From assembly GCA_000993405.1 (NCBI GenBank), contig LBWB01000016.1:1-40136 (forward strand): 40,136 nt of DNA, written 5' to 3'. Positions 7,050-25,233 of the stretch are shown piece after piece. Both the position numbers and the translations under genes were made by a program. Under the pieces are notes generated by a model, which did not search any database, was not told the origin of the DNA, and saw nothing but the letters and a program-made list of their open reading frames with translations. Positions within the stretch are counted from its first letter, which is position 1. Each line of letters opens with the position of its first letter. Origin of the DNA: Candidatus Woesebacteria bacterium GW2011_GWB1_39_12. Its GTDB lineage: Bacteria > Patescibacteriota > Microgenomatia > UBA8517.

Positions 7050-9081
7050 TTTGTCCTCCTTGTGGTTGTGATTGTTCTACTGGTTGTTCGGTTTGTTGTC
7101 CTTGTGCCTGTTCCTCCCCGACATGATTTTGATGCAATGCTTGAATTATCGGGTCAAGTGCCTCAAATTGTGGGCCATTGATAAATGCTTCATGGACTGC
7201 CAAATGCGGTTGGTCAGCCTTATCATAAGGTGGAACATTCTCTCCCCCGTTCATTCGGTCTATCTCTGCTTGAGCAACTTGTTTTGAGTCCTGCATTGGG
7301 GCTTCAATTCCGAAGTTTTTAGCAAGTATTTCCTCTTGAACGGCAGGAGGCAGAGTTTCAAGTTTAACCGTGATTGAGTAGTTTTTCTTCTCATTCTCTG
7401 GAGTTTTTGCCTCGGCAGCTTTAGCGGCTTCTTCCTTTAAGTCTGGGAAGAGAGAAACTGGGTCGTTCTTCCACTGGAAAAGTCTCTTGGCGGATTCGGT
7501 GGGATTGGGCCATTCTAATCTTTCAAAAAGCGTTATGGGGTCAATATTTCCCTGTTGCATTAAGTCCAATGCTTCCTGTCGTTGGGAGACCTTATCAACT
7601 GGTAACGTTGACCCTTCTTTAACGGAGATTTCAATTCCCTGTTCAATTGAATCACGGGAATATTCAATAACTTGTTGAGCTCCGTCTTTTCCGATAATTC
7701 TGGCATAGTGGGTTTGAGTAAAGTAAACTTTCATCATGTGCATCCATGCCTTATAAAGTTCATCAGCCACTTCCTCCAGCCCCCGAACCAGTAAGTCAAT
7801 TCTTCCAAAATCAGCTTCCCGTAAAATCTGTCTTCCGCCTAAAGTTTCCCTCCCCTGCCTCTCACCTCTGGTTGTTGAGTGAGTTCCCGCTACGTTATCA
7901 ACTGAAGATTTAAGCCCTTGAAGTGACTCGTAGGTGAAAGGAGCCAGTTGTTTGGCAGGTAGCCGTCCTATCCCTTCAGCTGGGTTTCCATGTTCCACCC
8001 ACACTTTATCTTCTGGGTCGCCAGTATATTTAGCCAGTTCCTCCTTGGTGATAAAGTCCCCGCTTCCCATCAAGACTCCGTTATCCGAAAAGTTGTCATC
8101 AATCTGCCTCTGCCTCTTATTTATCCCGTCCTGTAAAGGCATAATCTGCTCCACAAGTGAAGTATCATCCCAAACATTTTTACCAAGATTAAAGACGGAG
8201 TAGAAAATATAGGGAATTTTGGGTTTATCAAAATAATTATGGTAGTAAACTTCCCCCTCAATTTCCTGACCGTTCTCGTCAGTCGTTTTATTTTCAACTC
8301 CAGTATAATCAAAGTTTGGGTTCTTGAGTTTCTTGAAAATTAAGGTCTTGTACTTCCAACAAACGTACTCGGATGTCCAAAACTCCACATATTTAATTTT
8401 TGTTGCCAGTCCTTTTTGGTCAATCGTAGTTGGGTCATAATTTCCATCTTTATCTTGAGTGGCATTAAGTCCAAACTCCTTAATTACCTCACCAACCTTC
8501 TCAGGGAATTTCTTTAGGATTTCAGAAAGCGAATCTTCCAAGTATTCAACCACATACTCCCCGTTCTTATCTATAAGGATATTCTGGGGCAGGACATATT
8601 CGGTTACAATATCATCAATATCTGGGTCGTATTTGTATTTTAAGATTCCAATCCTTCTAAGCATATTATGTCTGGTTATCATTTGGAATTTACCCTTCAT
8701 TTTCTGTTTTTCAAACAAAGCCAGTAAAATTCTCTGGAGATTTTTGGCGTGTAACACCGACTCTGGGGTATTGGACTCCGATTTAGTTACGGGTTCGGGA
8801 GTTTTTGAAGTGATAATGGGGATGATTGTCTCAACCGTCTGGAAAGTGATATTCTCAACCACTCTTGATTTGAAGTCCCGCAATTTTTTACTGTCTATCT
8901 GTTTCCCCAACCAATAATTTTGGTTTAATTCGCCAATTCTGTCCAACTCATCATAGTCCTGTTTTGCTTTTGTTATCCGTTTATTGATAAGGGAGACTAA
9001 TTCCTTGTCTTCAATATCTAAAGACAACTCATCAAGTATTTCATCTTTCCCTTCTGTAGCTTCTTTTATTTTGTCTGCCAT
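7036..9081 (-). CDS. Portal protein
   Basis: ORF 681 aa between terminase and scaffold/MCP; ...YIFYSVFNLGKNVWDDTSLVEQIMPLQDGINKRQRQIDDNF. Confidence 0.85.
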   Translation of the reverse strand: MADKIKEATEGKDEILDELSLDIEDKELVSLINKRITKAKQDYDELDRIGELNQNYWLGKQIDSKKLRDFKSRVVENITFQTVETIIPIITSKTPEPVTKSESNTPESVLHAKNLQRILLALFEKQKMKGKFQMITRHNMLRRIGILKYKYDPDIDDIVTEYVLPQNILIDKNGEYVVEYLEDSLSEILKKFPEKVGEVIKEFGLNATQDKDGNYDPTTIDQKGLATKIKYVEFWTSEYVCWKYKTLIFKKLKNPNFDYTGVENKTTDENGQEIEGEVYYHNYFDKPKIPYIFYSVFNLGKNVWDDTSLVEQIMPLQDGINKRQRQIDDNFSDNGVLMGSGDFITKEELAKYTGDPEDKVWVEHGNPAEGIGRLPAKQLAPFTYESLQGLKSSVDNVAGTHSTTRGERQGRETLGGRQILREADFGRIDLLVRGLEEVADELYKAWMHMMKVYFTQTHYARIIGKDGAQQVIEYSRDSIEQGIEISVKEGSTLPVDKVSQRQEALDLMQQGNIDPITLFERLEWPNPTESAKRLFQWKNDPVSLFPDLKEEAAKAAEAKTPENEKKNYSITVKLETLPPAVQEEILAKNFGIEAPMQDSKQVAQAEIDRMNGGENVPPYDKADQPHLAVHEAFINGPQFEALDPIIQALHQNHVGEEQAQGQQTEQPVEQSQPQGGQNDQP

Positions 9082-9116: not shown

Positions 9117-9410
9117 TCAACTGATTGCATCTTCAATCCTTATTTCTTCCTCTTCTAATTTTTTTATTGCATCCCACTTGCTCTTTTTTTCCGCACCAAC
9201 CCTGCAACCCCGCAAGTATCGGGAAATGTATTGAATAGCCTTCTCTAAAACTATAAATGGACTGTCATCCTCAATCCATACTTCGTGGGATTTCCTGTCG
9301 CTGCAAATTTGACAGGAAAAAAACCAGTGGGCTTTGTCTTCAGTTGACTCAAGGCAAATATTTTCCACCCTCATATTTTTTATGATTTTAATCAGGTATT
9401 GTTCTATCAT
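9117..9410 (-). CDS. Hypothetical protein with Cys pairs
   Basis: ORF 97 aa, FSCQICSDRKSHEVW; starts within the TerL stop region. Confidence 0.55.
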   Translation of the reverse strand: MIEQYLIKIIKNMRVENICLESTEDKAHWFFSCQICSDRKSHEVWIEDDSPFIVLEKAIQYISRYLRGCRVGAEKKSKWDAIKKLEEEEIRIEDAIS

Positions 9411-11881
9411 ACATATCTCCAGTCTTTGGGTTCTTTTTCAAATATTGGCTTTCCTGGCATGGTGTCATCAACTATCTCAAATGACGGCTCACCATGAAGG
9501 CGGGAAGAAAAAGAATTTTTAACCACCGAACCCCTCTTTTCAGAATATCTCTTCAGACCAATTAAAAAGTAGTTAGTTGCGTGACAGTTTGAAACAAGAG
9601 CTCCATTAGCGAAGTATTCGTGAACATCTTCAACCTCTAGGTTGTATACCATGTCTTCTTCTCCACACTCTTGCTTGGAAACGATGGTTACATCTGGGGG
9701 AACAGTATTTTCCACCTGACCGAGAAATTGTTTGAGATGGTTTATTACATTCAATACAGTTGAATTTTTTTGGAACTTTAAGAACAATGGAATTAAAAGC
9801 ATGTTTAGAATGCCACGCTTTTCCTTCTGGTGTTCTTCTCCATATATGTGATAATTTATTGATTTTTTTAAGATGTTCTTTATTTTGTTTTCTCCGTTGT
9901 GGATTTTTGAAACTTTCTTTTGCATGTTGGGACATATGGAGACTTCTTGAGATACATTCAAGATTGGAAATATCATTGTTAAGCGAGTTACCGTCTTTAT
10001 GGTGTATTGCACAACCTTTTGGAAATTTTCCATGAATAGACATCCAAATTTCCTGATGAAGTCTTTTCCTACCTTTATAATGTTCAGTACCATTTGAATT
10101 AAAATACACCCTATCAGAACGATTAGGAGAATCAGGATACCTCCTATAAGTAATACCTTTGAATATGATTGCTTCTTGCATGTTTCTATTATATCACCAT
10201 AGTTCGTAGAATGTAAGTCAACGAAACCTTTATCTTTAATCCAGATTTTATGGTCGGGAGTTCCAATAAGAGATTTTCTATTTGAGAAATTAACTTTCAT
10301 TACCTTTGCGTTCTTCCTTGTCATCCAAGAACGAAGAACTTTCCTATATCCTTTTCTTGTTAAAACCATATCCCCAACTTTTACTTTCTTGATAAGTATT
10401 TCTCCCTTTGAAGTTTCAATTAAAGTTTCACCAACTAAACAAAAATGGTCTTTTCCCGTTGACTCCCAGATAAATTTGGGCACTCCCAGGAAATCCTCCT
10501 CCACCAATTTATACATAGTTGACCAGTGTTTTACAAATTCTTCTAAATCATAAGGTTTCATCTGGAATTTAATCTTTCCCGAAGCTAGCCAATCTATAAC
10601 CGTCTGTAAAGTTCGGTTTCGGTCAGCCCAGACATAACCCCAGTCCTTGTTCTCGCCCCACTTGGTATCTACCGCCCTGTCCTTGTCTTTGTGGTAGTAA
10701 CAGAGGTGGACTTTGTGAGGATATTTTTCCCTCAACTGGCGGGGAACGGTCAAGTCGGGAAGGGCATCCATGATAAGTACCGCATCAAATTTATTTCTCA
10801 GGTTCTCAATATCGTCCCACTCCTTAGTGCTCCCTACTTGGAAAATTCCCTCCTTATTTCCCAAAACATAATGTTTTTTCAACCCTTGGTCAACCCCCAT
10901 AATACAGTTGGTTTGGGAGTTTGGAGTTTCAACCACGTTTTTTAAGATAAGGGAGGCATCAATGATGGTGTCACTGCCCATGTAAGGTTTGCCTAAAACA
11001 AAATTATAGAAGTAGGCCTTGTTTTTATCCTCCTCCTCCAAAATCAGATTTTTAACATCTATCCACTCGGCCATCATCTGGTTAATCCAGTACCCTTTCA
11101 TCTCCCGACTGGGGTATTTAGCGACCCATTCGCCATGAGTCCTGTCGTAATTCTCTATTTTCTTTCCGCACCTGAAACAGATGTAGCGGCCATTGGCTTT
11201 GTCCACATTATTATCCCAATCCATGTACTGGTAATGTCCACAGGAGGGTTTTATAAACCAATGGTTCTGGGTTGAGAGGGTGAATTTTGCTCCTACTCCA
11301 GCCGTTGGGGCTGAAGGATTGGAAAGGAACCACTCGCCGTGATAGGGAGAAAATTTGACCCTTGAGGAGTAAATGTCAATCGTTGACAAGTCGCTTCGGT
11401 CTACCTCATCATAAACGTTTAAATCGGAAGACAACATAATCGCCTCTTTGCTGGTGAAAGTTCCCTTGTAGAAGATAAACGAGTCCCCGACTTTCTTGGT
11501 TTCTATGGAGTCTTTGTCCTTAACCCATTTGTAAATCTGGGAATTATTGTTTACGATTGGATTGACTTTGGAAGGTACAAACTTCCTAACGTCCTCTACT
11601 GTTGGGAGCGTGTAGATAATATTCATGTTTCTAAACTTCGCCATCCAAAAGGTTTTTAGAATCATCATGATTGAGAGACCCATCTGGGCTGATTTCTGGT
11701 AAACCTGGCGGGGAGACATATCACAAAAAGGCTCTATAAGGTATTTATGCCTCTTGAAAGAGATGGGAATTGCCCTCTCACTCTTCATTTTGTTAGCGTA
11801 AATCCAGACCAAAGGATTAACTGATTGAGCCTCGTAGATTATTTTTGTTAACTCTTCTTTGGTGAATTCCTTATTATCCAT
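9407..11881 (-). CDS. terL: Terminase large subunit (GpA-like) precursor, interrupted by an intein
   Basis: ORF 824 aa; Walker-B-like NVYDEVDRSD, zinc-binding CGHYQYMDW...CFRCGKKIEN, nuclease MGVDQGLKK; intein between GKDHF and CHATNYFLIGL. Confidence 0.9.
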   Translation of the reverse strand: MDNKEFTKEELTKIIYEAQSVNPLVWIYANKMKSERAIPISFKRHKYLIEPFCDMSPRQVYQKSAQMGLSIMMILKTFWMAKFRNMNIIYTLPTVEDVRKFVPSKVNPIVNNNSQIYKWVKDKDSIETKKVGDSFIFYKGTFTSKEAIMLSSDLNVYDEVDRSDLSTIDIYSSRVKFSPYHGEWFLSNPSAPTAGVGAKFTLSTQNHWFIKPSCGHYQYMDWDNNVDKANGRYICFRCGKKIENYDRTHGEWVAKYPSREMKGYWINQMMAEWIDVKNLILEEEDKNKAYFYNFVLGKPYMGSDTIIDASLILKNVVETPNSQTNCIMGVDQGLKKHYVLGNKEGIFQVGSTKEWDDIENLRNKFDAVLIMDALPDLTVPRQLREKYPHKVHLCYYHKDKDRAVDTKWGENKDWGYVWADRNRTLQTVIDWLASGKIKFQMKPYDLEEFVKHWSTMYKLVEEDFLGVPKFIWESTGKDHFCLVGETLIETSKGEILIKKVKVGDMVLTRKGYRKVLRSWMTRKNAKVMKVNFSNRKSLIGTPDHKIWIKDKGFVDLHSTNYGDIIETCKKQSYSKVLLIGGILILLIVLIGCILIQMVLNIIKVGKDFIRKFGCLFMENFQKVVQYTIKTVTRLTMIFPILNVSQEVSICPNMQKKVSKIHNGENKIKNILKKSINYHIYGEEHQKEKRGILNMLLIPLFLKFQKNSTVLNVINHLKQFLGQVENTVPPDVTIVSKQECGEEDMVYNLEVEDVHEYFANGALVSNCHATNYFLIGLKRYSEKRGSVVKNSFSSRLHGEPSFEIVDDTMPGKPIFEKEPKDWRYV
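9630..10181 (-). CDS. HNH endonuclease nested in the intein in a different reading frame
   Basis: ORF 183 aa: RLHQEIWMSIHGKFPKGCAIHHKDGNSLNNDISNLECISRSLHMSQHA (HNH_3-like) and C-terminal CIECNKPS...YCSPRCNHRF; 11881-10181 = 1700, not a multiple of 3. Confidence 0.9.
   Translation of the reverse strand: MQEAIIFKGITYRRYPDSPNRSDRVYFNSNGTEHYKGRKRLHQEIWMSIHGKFPKGCAIHHKDGNSLNNDISNLECISRSLHMSQHAKESFKNPQRRKQNKEHLKKINKLSHIWRRTPEGKAWHSKHAFNSIVLKVPKKFNCIECNKPSQTISRSGGKYCSPRCNHRFQARVWRRRHGIQPRG
10188..10196 (-). promoter_or_regulatory. Candidate extended -10 element (TGATATAAT) just upstream of the nested HNH start
   Basis: Minus-strand TGATATAAT-agaaac-ATG. Confidence 0.3.
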
Positions 11882-23882: not shown

Positions 23883-24227
23883 ATGAAAAATAAAGAGAAA
23901 TGTAAACACCCGAAAATAGCAAGACACCCTTATGGATTTTGTAATAATTGTGGGAAAGAAATATCCAAAGAGAAACCCCAATTAGATTGGGAAGAAGACT
24001 TAATAATTTTAGGTTTAATGAACCTACAAAATAAAGATTGGAGAACTTATGAAGTTAAAAAGTTAATAAAATTTGTTAATTTATTGCTCCAAAAAACAAG
24101 GAGAAAAGTGGTGGAGGAAATAATTGGTAAACTAAAGAGACAAAGTTATTTATTTGGCCATAAGTGGCAGGTGCCTTCGAATAAAAGGTACACCGCCTAT
24201 TGTCCGAAATGTCAGAAAGTATGTTAA
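23883..24227 (+). CDS. Zinc-ribbon-containing early protein
   Basis: ORF 114 aa, CKHPKIARHPYGFCNNCGKE ... AYCPKCQKVC. Confidence 0.6.
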   Translation: MKNKEKCKHPKIARHPYGFCNNCGKEISKEKPQLDWEEDLIILGLMNLQNKDWRTYEVKKLIKFVNLLLQKTRRKVVEEIIGKLKRQSYLFGHKWQVPSNKRYTAYCPKCQKVC

Positions 24228-24307
24228 TACTTAAAGAAAAACTAAAATATATTATTTATGGAAGTTTGTTTGTTTTGTTAGGGTATATAATTGGAGGTTT
24301 ATGGTAG
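24221..24307 (+). CDS. Tiny membrane peptide, 28 aa
   Basis: MLILKEKLKYIIYGSLFVLLGYIIGGLW; overlaps the upstream stop. Confidence 0.4.
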   Translation: MLILKEKLKYIIYGSLFVLLGYIIGGLW

Positions 24308-24434
24308 TTTAGTATGTGAACAAGGGAAATACCCGCCAAAAGACAGTTGTGTAAAGTTTACCAACAGGTTGCTAATCCGAAGTCACCGAGAAAAGAATGG
24401 CGGAATGTACGTTCAAGTCGTACAGCTACCACCA
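24303..24434 (+). ncRNA. tRNA-like RNA with encoded CCA and a 59-nt anticodon-loop insertion
   Basis: Acceptor GGTAGTT/AGCTACC (7 bp, one G-U), T8 A9, D-stem GTAT/ATAC, anticodon stem CGCCA/TGGCG, T-arm GTACG-TTCAAGT-CGTAC, then A-CCA. Confidence 0.6.
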
Positions 24435-24650
24435 CGCTGAATAATCTGTGATAGTTCAGCAAGTACCAGAACTGAGGACTCTGGGTCTTATCTCCCGCTC
24501 TAGGGCTTTCCTTGGGGCGGATAAAAGTACATACACGGGAGTTCCGTGAAAGTACGATAGAGATGGAGTAAAATCCTACCTCTGGAGTACATTTCTAAAT
24601 TATAGATTGGCACAGATGCGATTTAGACACTTAACTCCCCGCCTTATTTA
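24435..24650 (+). ncRNA. Multi-hairpin structured RNA candidate downstream of the tRNA-like element
   Basis: GCTGAA...TTCAGC; CCAGA...TCTGG; CCGCTC...GGGCGG flanked by TTAT/ATAA; CACGG-gagtt-CCGTG; no credible ORF. Confidence 0.5.
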
Positions 24651-24653
24651 ATT

Positions 24654-24791
24654 ATGATTATATCTAATCCTTGCCCGATTTGTAGTTACCCCTTAAGAGA
24701 AAGTATAGGTTATCTAACATGCGAGAATTGTGGTAAAGTTATTTATAGAATTAACACCAAGAAGAAGAAAGTTAAAAGAATAGTAAACTGA
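24654..24791 (+). CDS. Zinc-ribbon protein, 45 aa
   Basis: MIISNPCPICSYPLRESIGYLTCENCGKVIYRINTKKKKVKRIVN. Confidence 0.55.
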   Translation: MIISNPCPICSYPLRESIGYLTCENCGKVIYRINTKKKKVKRIVN

Positions 24792-24792
24792 T

Positions 24793-25233
24793 ATGGACGA
24801 AGTTCTAACTAAAACATTTACTTTTATGAAGTTCCCCAAGCCCATTAAGAAACCTAAAAAAACAATGAAGGACTACATAAAAACACGTAAACTACTCAAG
24901 CTAAAATCAAAATCTAAAGGGGTTAAGGTTAAAAAGGTAAAGTTGCCAAAGGAAAAGACAAGAAGTAAGTTGATTAAAGAAGAAAGAGAAATATTAAAAA
25001 AAGAATTTCAAAAAAAAGGAATAACATCTTGTGAATTAAGATTTAAGAATTGTTGGAAAACAAATGCTCTTGGTTTTTCCCATAAACATAAAAGAAATTG
25101 GTATCTCGGTAAAAACAATAAAGAACTATTATGGGAATTTAATCAAGTTATTTTAGCTTGTAATTCTTGCCATTTTATTATAGAATATGATAAGGAATTA
25201 ACTAAAAAAGTATTTAAAAAGTTAAGACCTTAA
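24793..25233 (+). CDS. HNH nuclease-like protein
   Basis: CELRFKNCWKTNALGFSHKHKRNWYL...NQVILACNSCHFIIEYDKELTKKVFKKL. Confidence 0.65.
   Translation: MDEVLTKTFTFMKFPKPIKKPKKTMKDYIKTRKLLKLKSKSKGVKVKKVKLPKEKTRSKLIKEEREILKKEFQKKGITSCELRFKNCWKTNALGFSHKHKRNWYLGKNNKELLWEFNQVILACNSCHFIIEYDKELTKKVFKKLRP

What the first reader, a model, noticed from the sequence alone, without database searches (positions are those of the whole stretch)
24435..24650. Dense run of hairpins after the tRNA-like element: candidate large phage ncRNA
This GC-richer stretch lacks a credible ORF and folds by eye into at least four stems (GCTGAA/TTCAGC; CCAGA/TCTGG; TTAT-CCGCTC/GGGCGG-ATAA; CACGG/CCGTG), with AGTAC recurring at 24462, 24527, 24551 and 24586 between them. 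With the tRNA-like part it makes an about 350-nt structured locus. Association of a large structured RNA with tRNA is reminiscent of GOLLD-type phage RNAs, but I see no sequence match I can claim. I also searched by eye for group I intron P7 signatures and did not find them.
Basis: partly seen in the sequence, partly recalled or inferred. Interest (0 to 1): 0.72.

Follow-up and report, generated by a model that had tools for sequence, protein, structure and literature searches.

The report
Orphan tRNA-mimicking structured phage RNA
A virus of a small-genome bacterium carries a 350-base stretch with no gene in it whose front part is shaped like a transfer RNA that cannot read codons and whose rear part is a chain of hairpins; it looks like a real non-coding RNA without any known relatives, and what it does is still a guess.

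Summary
All named stems and four AGTAC copies are present (one sits at 24526, not 24527), there is no credible ORF, and the stretch folds better than shuffled DNA (z -3.4). The unit is larger than reported: a 346-nt gap (24308-24653) between small ORFs; the most GC-rich 346-nt stretch of the early region starts exactly at 24303. Its 5' part (24303-24434) is a full tRNA cloverleaf: 7-bp acceptor, D-stem, 'anticodon' stem, T-arm TTCAAGT, A73 and encoded CCA. A 59-nt insert replaces the anticodon loop and there is no U33, so it cannot decode. That combination arose once in 943 Mb of random sequence. Nothing in Rfam matches (GOLLD, ROOL, HEARO, tmRNA, group I). Apart from an identical IMG/VR copy no homologue was found in phage records, 1.25 Mb of related phage contigs, or 374-380 sampled genomes of the host's class and phylum, so covariation is untestable. 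A related TM7 phage independently carries a different promoter-to-terminator RNA with a tmRNA-like, tag-less tRNA mimic. Best reading: a non-decoding tRNA mimic with a structured tail, probably processed by host tRNA enzymes and possibly titrating a tRNA-binding factor. Mechanism inferred.

The parts
24303..24434 (+). tRNA-like cloverleaf with a 59-nt insert in place of the anticodon loop and an encoded A73-CCA
   Evidence: RNAfold recovers the cloverleaf without constraint on the isolated 132-nt element; full pattern 1 hit in 943 Mb random; ARAGORN 0 tRNAs; Rfam tRNA 16.9 bits, below the 29-bit cut-off
24303..24309 (+). acceptor stem 5' strand GGTAGTT, pairs with AGCTACC 24424-24430 (7/7 with one U.G at 6:67; 3:70 is U-A, so no alanine G3.U70 signal)
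   Evidence: sequence
24312..24332 (+). D-arm: GTAT/ATAC 4 bp, 13-nt loop GTGAACAAGGGAA
24333..24403 (+). 'anticodon' stem CCGCCA/TGGCGG (24333-24338 / 24398-24403) closing a 59-nt insert (24339-24397); no U33, so not a decoding tRNA
   Evidence: sequence
24346..24365 (+). hairpin GTTG(T)GTAA-AGT-TTACCAAC inside the insert
24407..24423 (+). T-arm GTACG TTCAAGT CGTAC, canonical 7-nt T-loop
24432..24434 (+). encoded CCA
24436..24460 (+). hairpin A, GCTGAAT..GTTCAGC plus inner ATC/GAT, 10 bp
24461..24489 (+). hairpin B, CCAGA/TCTGG (24466-24470/24480-24484) with outer AAG/CTT
24488..24524 (+). hairpin C, CCGCTCTAGGG-CTTT-CCTTGGGGCGG 11 bp; optional TTAT/ATAA extension
24534..24548 (+). hairpin D, CACGG-GAGTT-CCGTG; GGGAGTT (24537-24543) can instead pair with AACTCCC 24633-24639 (alternative fold or pseudoknot)
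24552..24590 (+). hairpin E, GTAC..AGAG..GGA/TCC..CTCT..GTAC
24594..24627 (+). hairpin F, TCTAAATT/GATTTAGA
24462..24590 (+). four AGTAC copies (24462, 24526, 24551, 24586) between or beside the stems; six palindromic GTAC in the whole RNA
   Evidence: 0 of 5000 shuffles
24286..24291 (+). TATAAT, possible -10 box just upstream; no convincing -35
   Evidence: sequence; the promoter scan does not list it
24221..24307 (+). upstream 28-aa membrane-like ORF whose stop overlaps the acceptor 5' strand
24654..24791 (+). downstream 45-aa zinc-ribbon ORF, no Shine-Dalgarno
   Evidence: Zn_Ribbon_TF, E 0.006, below cut-off
24793..25233 (+). downstream 146-aa ORF with HNH-like Cys/His pattern (no Pfam or PHROG match)
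   Evidence: relatives in L153, L163, L224, L225
25237..26049 (+). DUF1064 / Holliday-junction-resolvase-like nuclease

Best explanation
The stretch is a phage-encoded structured RNA of about 350 nt, on the early-gene strand between the replication genes and a resolvase-like gene. It has two modules. The 5' module is a tRNA mimic: it has every arm that host tRNA-handling enzymes recognise (acceptor, T-arm, elbow, CCA), but its anticodon loop is replaced by a 59-nt structured insert, so it cannot decode. The 3' module is a chain of hairpins with AGTAC linkers. Most likely host RNase P cuts just before 24303 and tRNA 3'-end processing acts after the CCA at 24434. This frees the mimic and gives the hairpin module a defined 5' end within an otherwise polycistronic early transcript. 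The freed mimic then occupies a tRNA-binding host factor (SmpB/tmRNA system, EF-Tu, or a synthetase), as reported for tag-less tRNA-like-domain RNAs. Shown by computation: the fold, the gap, the non-decoding loop, the lack of a known family. Inferred: transcription, processing, and what the mimic binds.
For: Cloverleaf with correct spacing and CCA: 1 in 943 Mb random sequence; the looser acceptor+T-arm+CCA criterion gave 2 hits in 3.9 Mb shuffled gaps. Unconstrained folding finds it on the isolated element. 3' part z -3.4; whole z about -3. GC island starting at 24303. A related phage (MG269973; capsid 38-40% identical) has, in an annotated 396-nt gap, a promoter (11/12 sigma-70 match), a structured domain, a 66-nt tRNA-like element with G3.U70, A73 and CCA that Rfam scores as tmRNA (34.9 bits, below the 47-bit cut-off), and a hairpin followed by a T run. 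TLD-only tmRNA in phage DS6A, and strong inhibition of tmRNA by a similar molecule, perhaps by titrating SmpB, are reported in PMC4131195 and PMC11915505. Bacterial RNase P cleaves non-tRNA substrates, including tRNA-like structures and phage RNAs, and a 3' RCCA motif matters (PMC12710915). The host carries a normal tmRNA.
Against: No diverged homologue, so no covariation and no evidence of selection on the fold. No strong promoter or intrinsic terminator of its own on the + strand. The element has U3-A70, so the alanine signal of tmRNA is absent, and it shows no significant sequence similarity to the host tmRNA (fraction of shuffles reaching the observed score 0.1-0.46). When the whole RNA is folded, a long-range alternative that breaks the acceptor and anticodon-like stems has nearly the same energy (-103.5, -104, keeps the cloverleaf). 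The similar TM7-phage RNA has the two modules in the opposite order and no clear sequence homology.
Confidence: 0.4

Rival explanations
1. Punctuation only: the tRNA-like element is merely an RNase P / tRNA 3'-processing signal that cuts a long early transcript, and the hairpin part is the protected 5' leader (possibly regulatory) of the zinc-ribbon/HNH-like/resolvase genes; the freed tRNA mimic has no job of its own.
For: It lies between consecutive same-strand ORFs, overlaps the stop of the upstream ORF and ends right before an ORF without Shine-Dalgarno; no own terminator; GGGAGTT/AACTCCC alternative pairing near the downstream start.
Against: Simple punctuation does not need a 59-nt structured insert in place of the anticodon loop; no homologous leader before the HNH-like relatives in L153, L163, L224, L225.
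Confidence: 0.25
2. Tag-less tmRNA: the 5' module is a divergent tRNA-like domain of tmRNA (TLD-only), as in phage DS6A and apparently in the TM7 phage, which blocks host trans-translation.
For: The same kind of element in the related TM7 phage is closer to tmRNA than to tRNA; short collinear matches to the host tmRNA (GGGAAAT after the D-loop, TTGCTAA near the resume codon, CGGA before the T-stem) seen by eye in L213 (one search prints the sequence).
Against: Clan competition in Rfam puts this element under tRNA, not tmRNA; the tmRNA model does not list it in its own genome at E<=10; alignment to the host tmRNA is no better than shuffles; G3.U70 absent; it has a D-stem.
Confidence: 0.15
3. 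A decayed or intron-interrupted tRNA gene captured by the phage, with an unrelated hairpin-rich intergenic stretch behind it.
For: T-arm, acceptor and CCA are ordinary; phages often carry tRNAs, and some related contigs carry normal ones.
Against: No similarity to any collected host tRNA beyond shuffles; no U33 possible at either edge of the insert; all stems intact, which decay would not preserve; insert far too short for a group I intron and no group I match.
Confidence: 0.1
4. A DNA-level element (replication origin or protein-binding array) whose inverted repeats and GTAC palindromes only look like RNA.
For: Both strands fold about equally well; GTAC/AGTAC cluster; a DnaD-like helicase loader and RecE-like exonuclease lie in the same early region.
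Against: The tRNA cloverleaf with CCA is an RNA feature; no GC-skew switch centred here.
Confidence: 0.1

Closest known systems
TLD-only (tag-less) tmRNA of mycobacteriophage DS6A (PMC4131195; PMC11915505)
   Same: phage-encoded tRNA-like RNA with acceptor, T-arm and CCA, without a usable anticodon
   Different: here a D-stem, a 59-nt insert, no G3.U70, no tmRNA-model match, and a 216-nt structured tail
Unannotated RNA of TM7 phage DolZOral124_53_65 (MG269973: 7847-8242, minus strand; found here)
   Same: phage with a related capsid; about 350 nt noncoding; tRNA-like element with CCA without U33 next to a structured domain; lies upstream of HNH genes
   Different: domain order reversed (structured domain first), 7-nt loop, tmRNA-like, strong promoter and terminator-like hairpin, no clear sequence homology
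GOLLD and ROOL RNAs (Rfam; PMC12286853)
   Same: large structured phage RNAs associated with tRNAs
   Different: this one is much shorter, has no Rfam match, and its tRNA-like element is part of the unit and non-decoding
Viral 3' tRNA-like structures (TYMV type; RF00233 is in the Rfam copy searched)
   Same: tRNA mimicry with CCA without decoding
   Different: no match in this window; here a DNA phage with an internal element followed by a further structured domain

Membership tests
tRNA (decoding) | cloverleaf stems and T-loop | tested here: met
tRNA (decoding) | 7-nt anticodon loop with U33 | tested here: not met
   59-nt loop, A at either edge; ARAGORN none; Rfam 16.9 bits, below the 29-bit cut-off
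tmRNA / TLD-only tmRNA | match to RF00023 | tested here: not met
   not listed for this element at E<=10 in its own genome nor (one search keeps only the best clan member)
tmRNA / TLD-only tmRNA | G3.U70 alanine identity | tested here: not met
   3:70 is U-A; the only U.G is at 6:67 (sequence)
tmRNA / TLD-only tmRNA | binds SmpB / inhibits tagging | not testable with these tools
   needs biochemistry
GOLLD / ROOL / HEARO | covariance-model match | tested here: not met
Group I intron | P7/P4 core motifs and Rfam match | tested here: not met
Structured ncRNA | folds better than shuffled sequence | tested here: met
Structured ncRNA | covariation across homologues | tested here: inconclusive
   only an identical copy exists; models R1 and R2 find nothing else
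Structured ncRNA | transcribed | not testable with these tools
   no RNA-seq available

The most novel reading that the evidence does not exclude
Phages of small-genome (probably Patescibacteria) hosts carry a so far undescribed kind of RNA, a non-decoding tRNA mimic joined to a structured domain, that uses host tRNA enzymes to be cut out and then jams a tRNA-binding step such as ribosome rescue. The present RNA and the TM7-phage RNA would be two independent examples.
Probability: 0.25. Interest if true: 0.75.

Novelty: new variant of a known kind. Interest (0 to 1): 0.47.

Why it matters
If real, it shows a phage using a tRNA look-alike that cannot translate, either to cut out a structured RNA or to block host ribosome rescue, in reduced-genome bacteria that are hard to culture. 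It also points to an unannotated tag-less tmRNA-like RNA in a named TM7 phage, which makes the idea that phages disarm trans-translation with tRNA-like decoys directly testable.

Tried and rejected
GOLLD/ROOL/HEARO/group I: no Rfam match. Phage BLAST: none. T-arm DNA pattern in IMG/VR: 22 stretches, only the identical phage holds this element; the others are mostly ordinary tRNAs or unrelated sequence. Neighbour-gene and capsid scans: about 80 related phage loci, 34 taken up as records and most fetched whole, no homologue of the RNA. Single-sequence covariance models over relatives and sampled host order/class/phylum genomes: only the window; one E 6e-4 hit (G012) looks like coding sequence and chance. 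Host tRNA origin or attP from a host tRNA: no similarity. Host tmRNA origin: not better than shuffles. MAFFT alignment with the TM7-phage RNA shows no convincing homology. An AGTAC shuffle test used a poor shuffler and is replaced. The base-pair probabilities printed are wrong (indexing slip, all 0.0) and are not used.

Full report
WHAT IS THERE. The window is one whole contig (G000:C16, 40136 bp) in a bacterial bin of 1.5 Mb; genomes of the same family are mostly 0.4-1.2 Mb. The contig is a tailed phage: major head protein, portal, terminase with an intein, glycosyltransferase, holin, exonuclease, DnaD-like loader, resolvase. The same phage is in IMG/VR as a rotated 39961-bp record, and the RNA region is identical there. 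The capsid relatives include TM7 (Saccharibacteria) phage MG269973, so the host is probably a Patescibacterium; its name was not shown to me.

THE OBSERVATION. The AGTAC copies are at 24462, 24526, 24551 and 24586, and their clustering is not chance. The 216-nt piece folds with z -3.38, but its complement does so too (z -3.31), so folding energy does not pick the strand.

THE UNIT IS LARGER. The noncoding gap runs from 24308 to 24653, between a 28-aa membrane-like ORF and a 45-aa zinc-ribbon ORF. It has 43% GC against 30% in the early region, and the most GC-rich 346-nt stretch of the early region begins at 24303. That is the first base of a tRNA-like element.

THE tRNA-LIKE ELEMENT. 24303-24434 reads GGTAGTT-TA-[GTAT/13-nt loop/ATAC]-[CCGCCA/59-nt insert/TGGCGG]-AAT-[GTACG TTCAAGT CGTAC]-AGCTACC-A-CCA. 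RNAfold, given the isolated element alone, returns this cloverleaf. Requiring all four stems, a TTCRANN loop and CCA, I found one match in 943 Mb of random sequence of the gap's composition. ARAGORN sees no tRNA and Rfam's tRNA model gives 16.9 bits with a different 5' end. The insert has its own hairpin (24346-24365). Neither edge of the insert offers U33, so the element cannot work as a decoding tRNA even if the insert were removed. The acceptor stem carries U3-A70, so it lacks the alanine signal of tmRNA.

THE 3' PART. Hairpins A to F follow directly behind the CCA, with AGTAC in the linkers; GGGAGTT (24537) can pair either locally or with AACTCCC (24633), giving alternative folds. No intrinsic terminator and no strong promoter are seen on this strand, although a TATAAT lies at 24286-24291, 11 nt upstream of the element. 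The RNA may therefore be cut from a longer early transcript. When the whole RNA is folded, an alternative that destroys the acceptor and anticodon-like stems is about as stable, so the cloverleaf in the full-length RNA is a prediction that needs probing.

RELATIVES. Apart from the identical phage record, no homologue of this RNA turned up: not in 50,697 phage records, not by T-arm pattern in IMG/VR, not in about 1.25 Mb of contigs of related phages, not in 57 genomes of the order, 374 of the class or 380 of the phylum. The nearest relatives by capsid (83%) are fragments that do not reach this region.

AN INDEPENDENT COUNTERPART. Scanning capsid relatives for the acceptor/T-arm/CCA pattern gave, besides ordinary tRNAs and one doubtful hit (L152), one more case: the TM7 phage. 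In its annotated gap 7847-8242 (minus strand) lie a near-consensus promoter, a structured domain closed by a 10-bp stem, a 66-nt tRNA-like element (acceptor with G3.U70, A73, CCA; no U33) that Rfam ranks as tmRNA at 34.9 bits, and a hairpin with a T run. This fits a tag-less tRNA-like domain, the form known from mycobacteriophage DS6A. The literature states that a similar molecule strongly inhibits tmRNA whether or not it can be charged, perhaps by titrating SmpB (PMC4131195; also PMC11915505). Two TM7-phage-like contigs have other structured gaps with terminator-like hairpins near the equivalent place but without the tRNA-like part.

HOW IT MOST LIKELY WORKS. Established knowledge: bacterial RNase P cuts tRNA-like substrates and a 3' RCCA motif helps (PMC12710915); tRNA-like-domain RNAs can inhibit trans-translation (PMC4131195). 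Inference: host enzymes cut the element out of the early transcript at 24303 and after 24434, giving the hairpin module a clean 5' end, and the mimic then competes for a tRNA-binding factor. I give this 0.4, the plain punctuation/leader version 0.25, a divergent tag-less tmRNA 0.15, a broken tRNA 0.1, and a DNA-level element 0.1.

MEMBERSHIP. It is not filed as tRNA (no decoding loop), tmRNA (model, G3.U70 and sequence similarity fail), GOLLD/ROOL/HEARO (no match), or group I intron (no match, no core motifs). It works like a viral tRNA mimic, which is a resemblance and not a family assignment.

VERDICT. A real structured locus containing a non-decoding tRNA mimic, orphan, with function unproven. 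The finding is more interesting than a hairpin cluster because of the mimic and the TM7-phage parallel, but without homologues or transcripts it stays a candidate.

Noticed in passing
L039 (MG269973) 7847-8242, minus strand: TM7 phage DolZOral124_53_65 has an unannotated RNA unit with an 11/12 sigma-70-like promoter, a structured domain, a 66-nt tag-less tmRNA-like element (Rfam tmRNA 34.9 bits, G3.U70, CCA) and a terminator-like hairpin.
   Followed up: partly
window 9407-11881 and 9630-10181, minus strand: The terminase large subunit carries an intein-like (Hint) region, and a 183-aa HNH_3 endonuclease ORF lies inside that region in another frame of the same strand.
   Followed up: partly
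L134: 9850-10127; L131: about 11480-11640 (-); L180: about 8890-9070 (-): Strongly folding gaps followed by terminator-like hairpins in related phage contigs, no Rfam match at gathering threshold; possibly further phage ncRNAs near HNH/terminase genes.
   Followed up: partly
window 24293-24312: GGAGG then ATG GTA GTT TAG: a three-codon minigene-like start overlapping the acceptor stem; probably a by-product of Gly-Gly codons in the upstream ORF.
   Followed up: no
L019 around 11600-11730, L023 around 1415-1545, L030 (-): Another tRNA-like unit with a GATCGG../CCGATC acceptor and the same T-arm that ARAGORN does not call; in L023 a tRNA-Leu is called just downstream.
   Followed up: no
G000:C5:14507-14866 (L213): The host bin has a normal one-piece tmRNA with tag ANKSDYDFDYAYLS.
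   Followed up: yes
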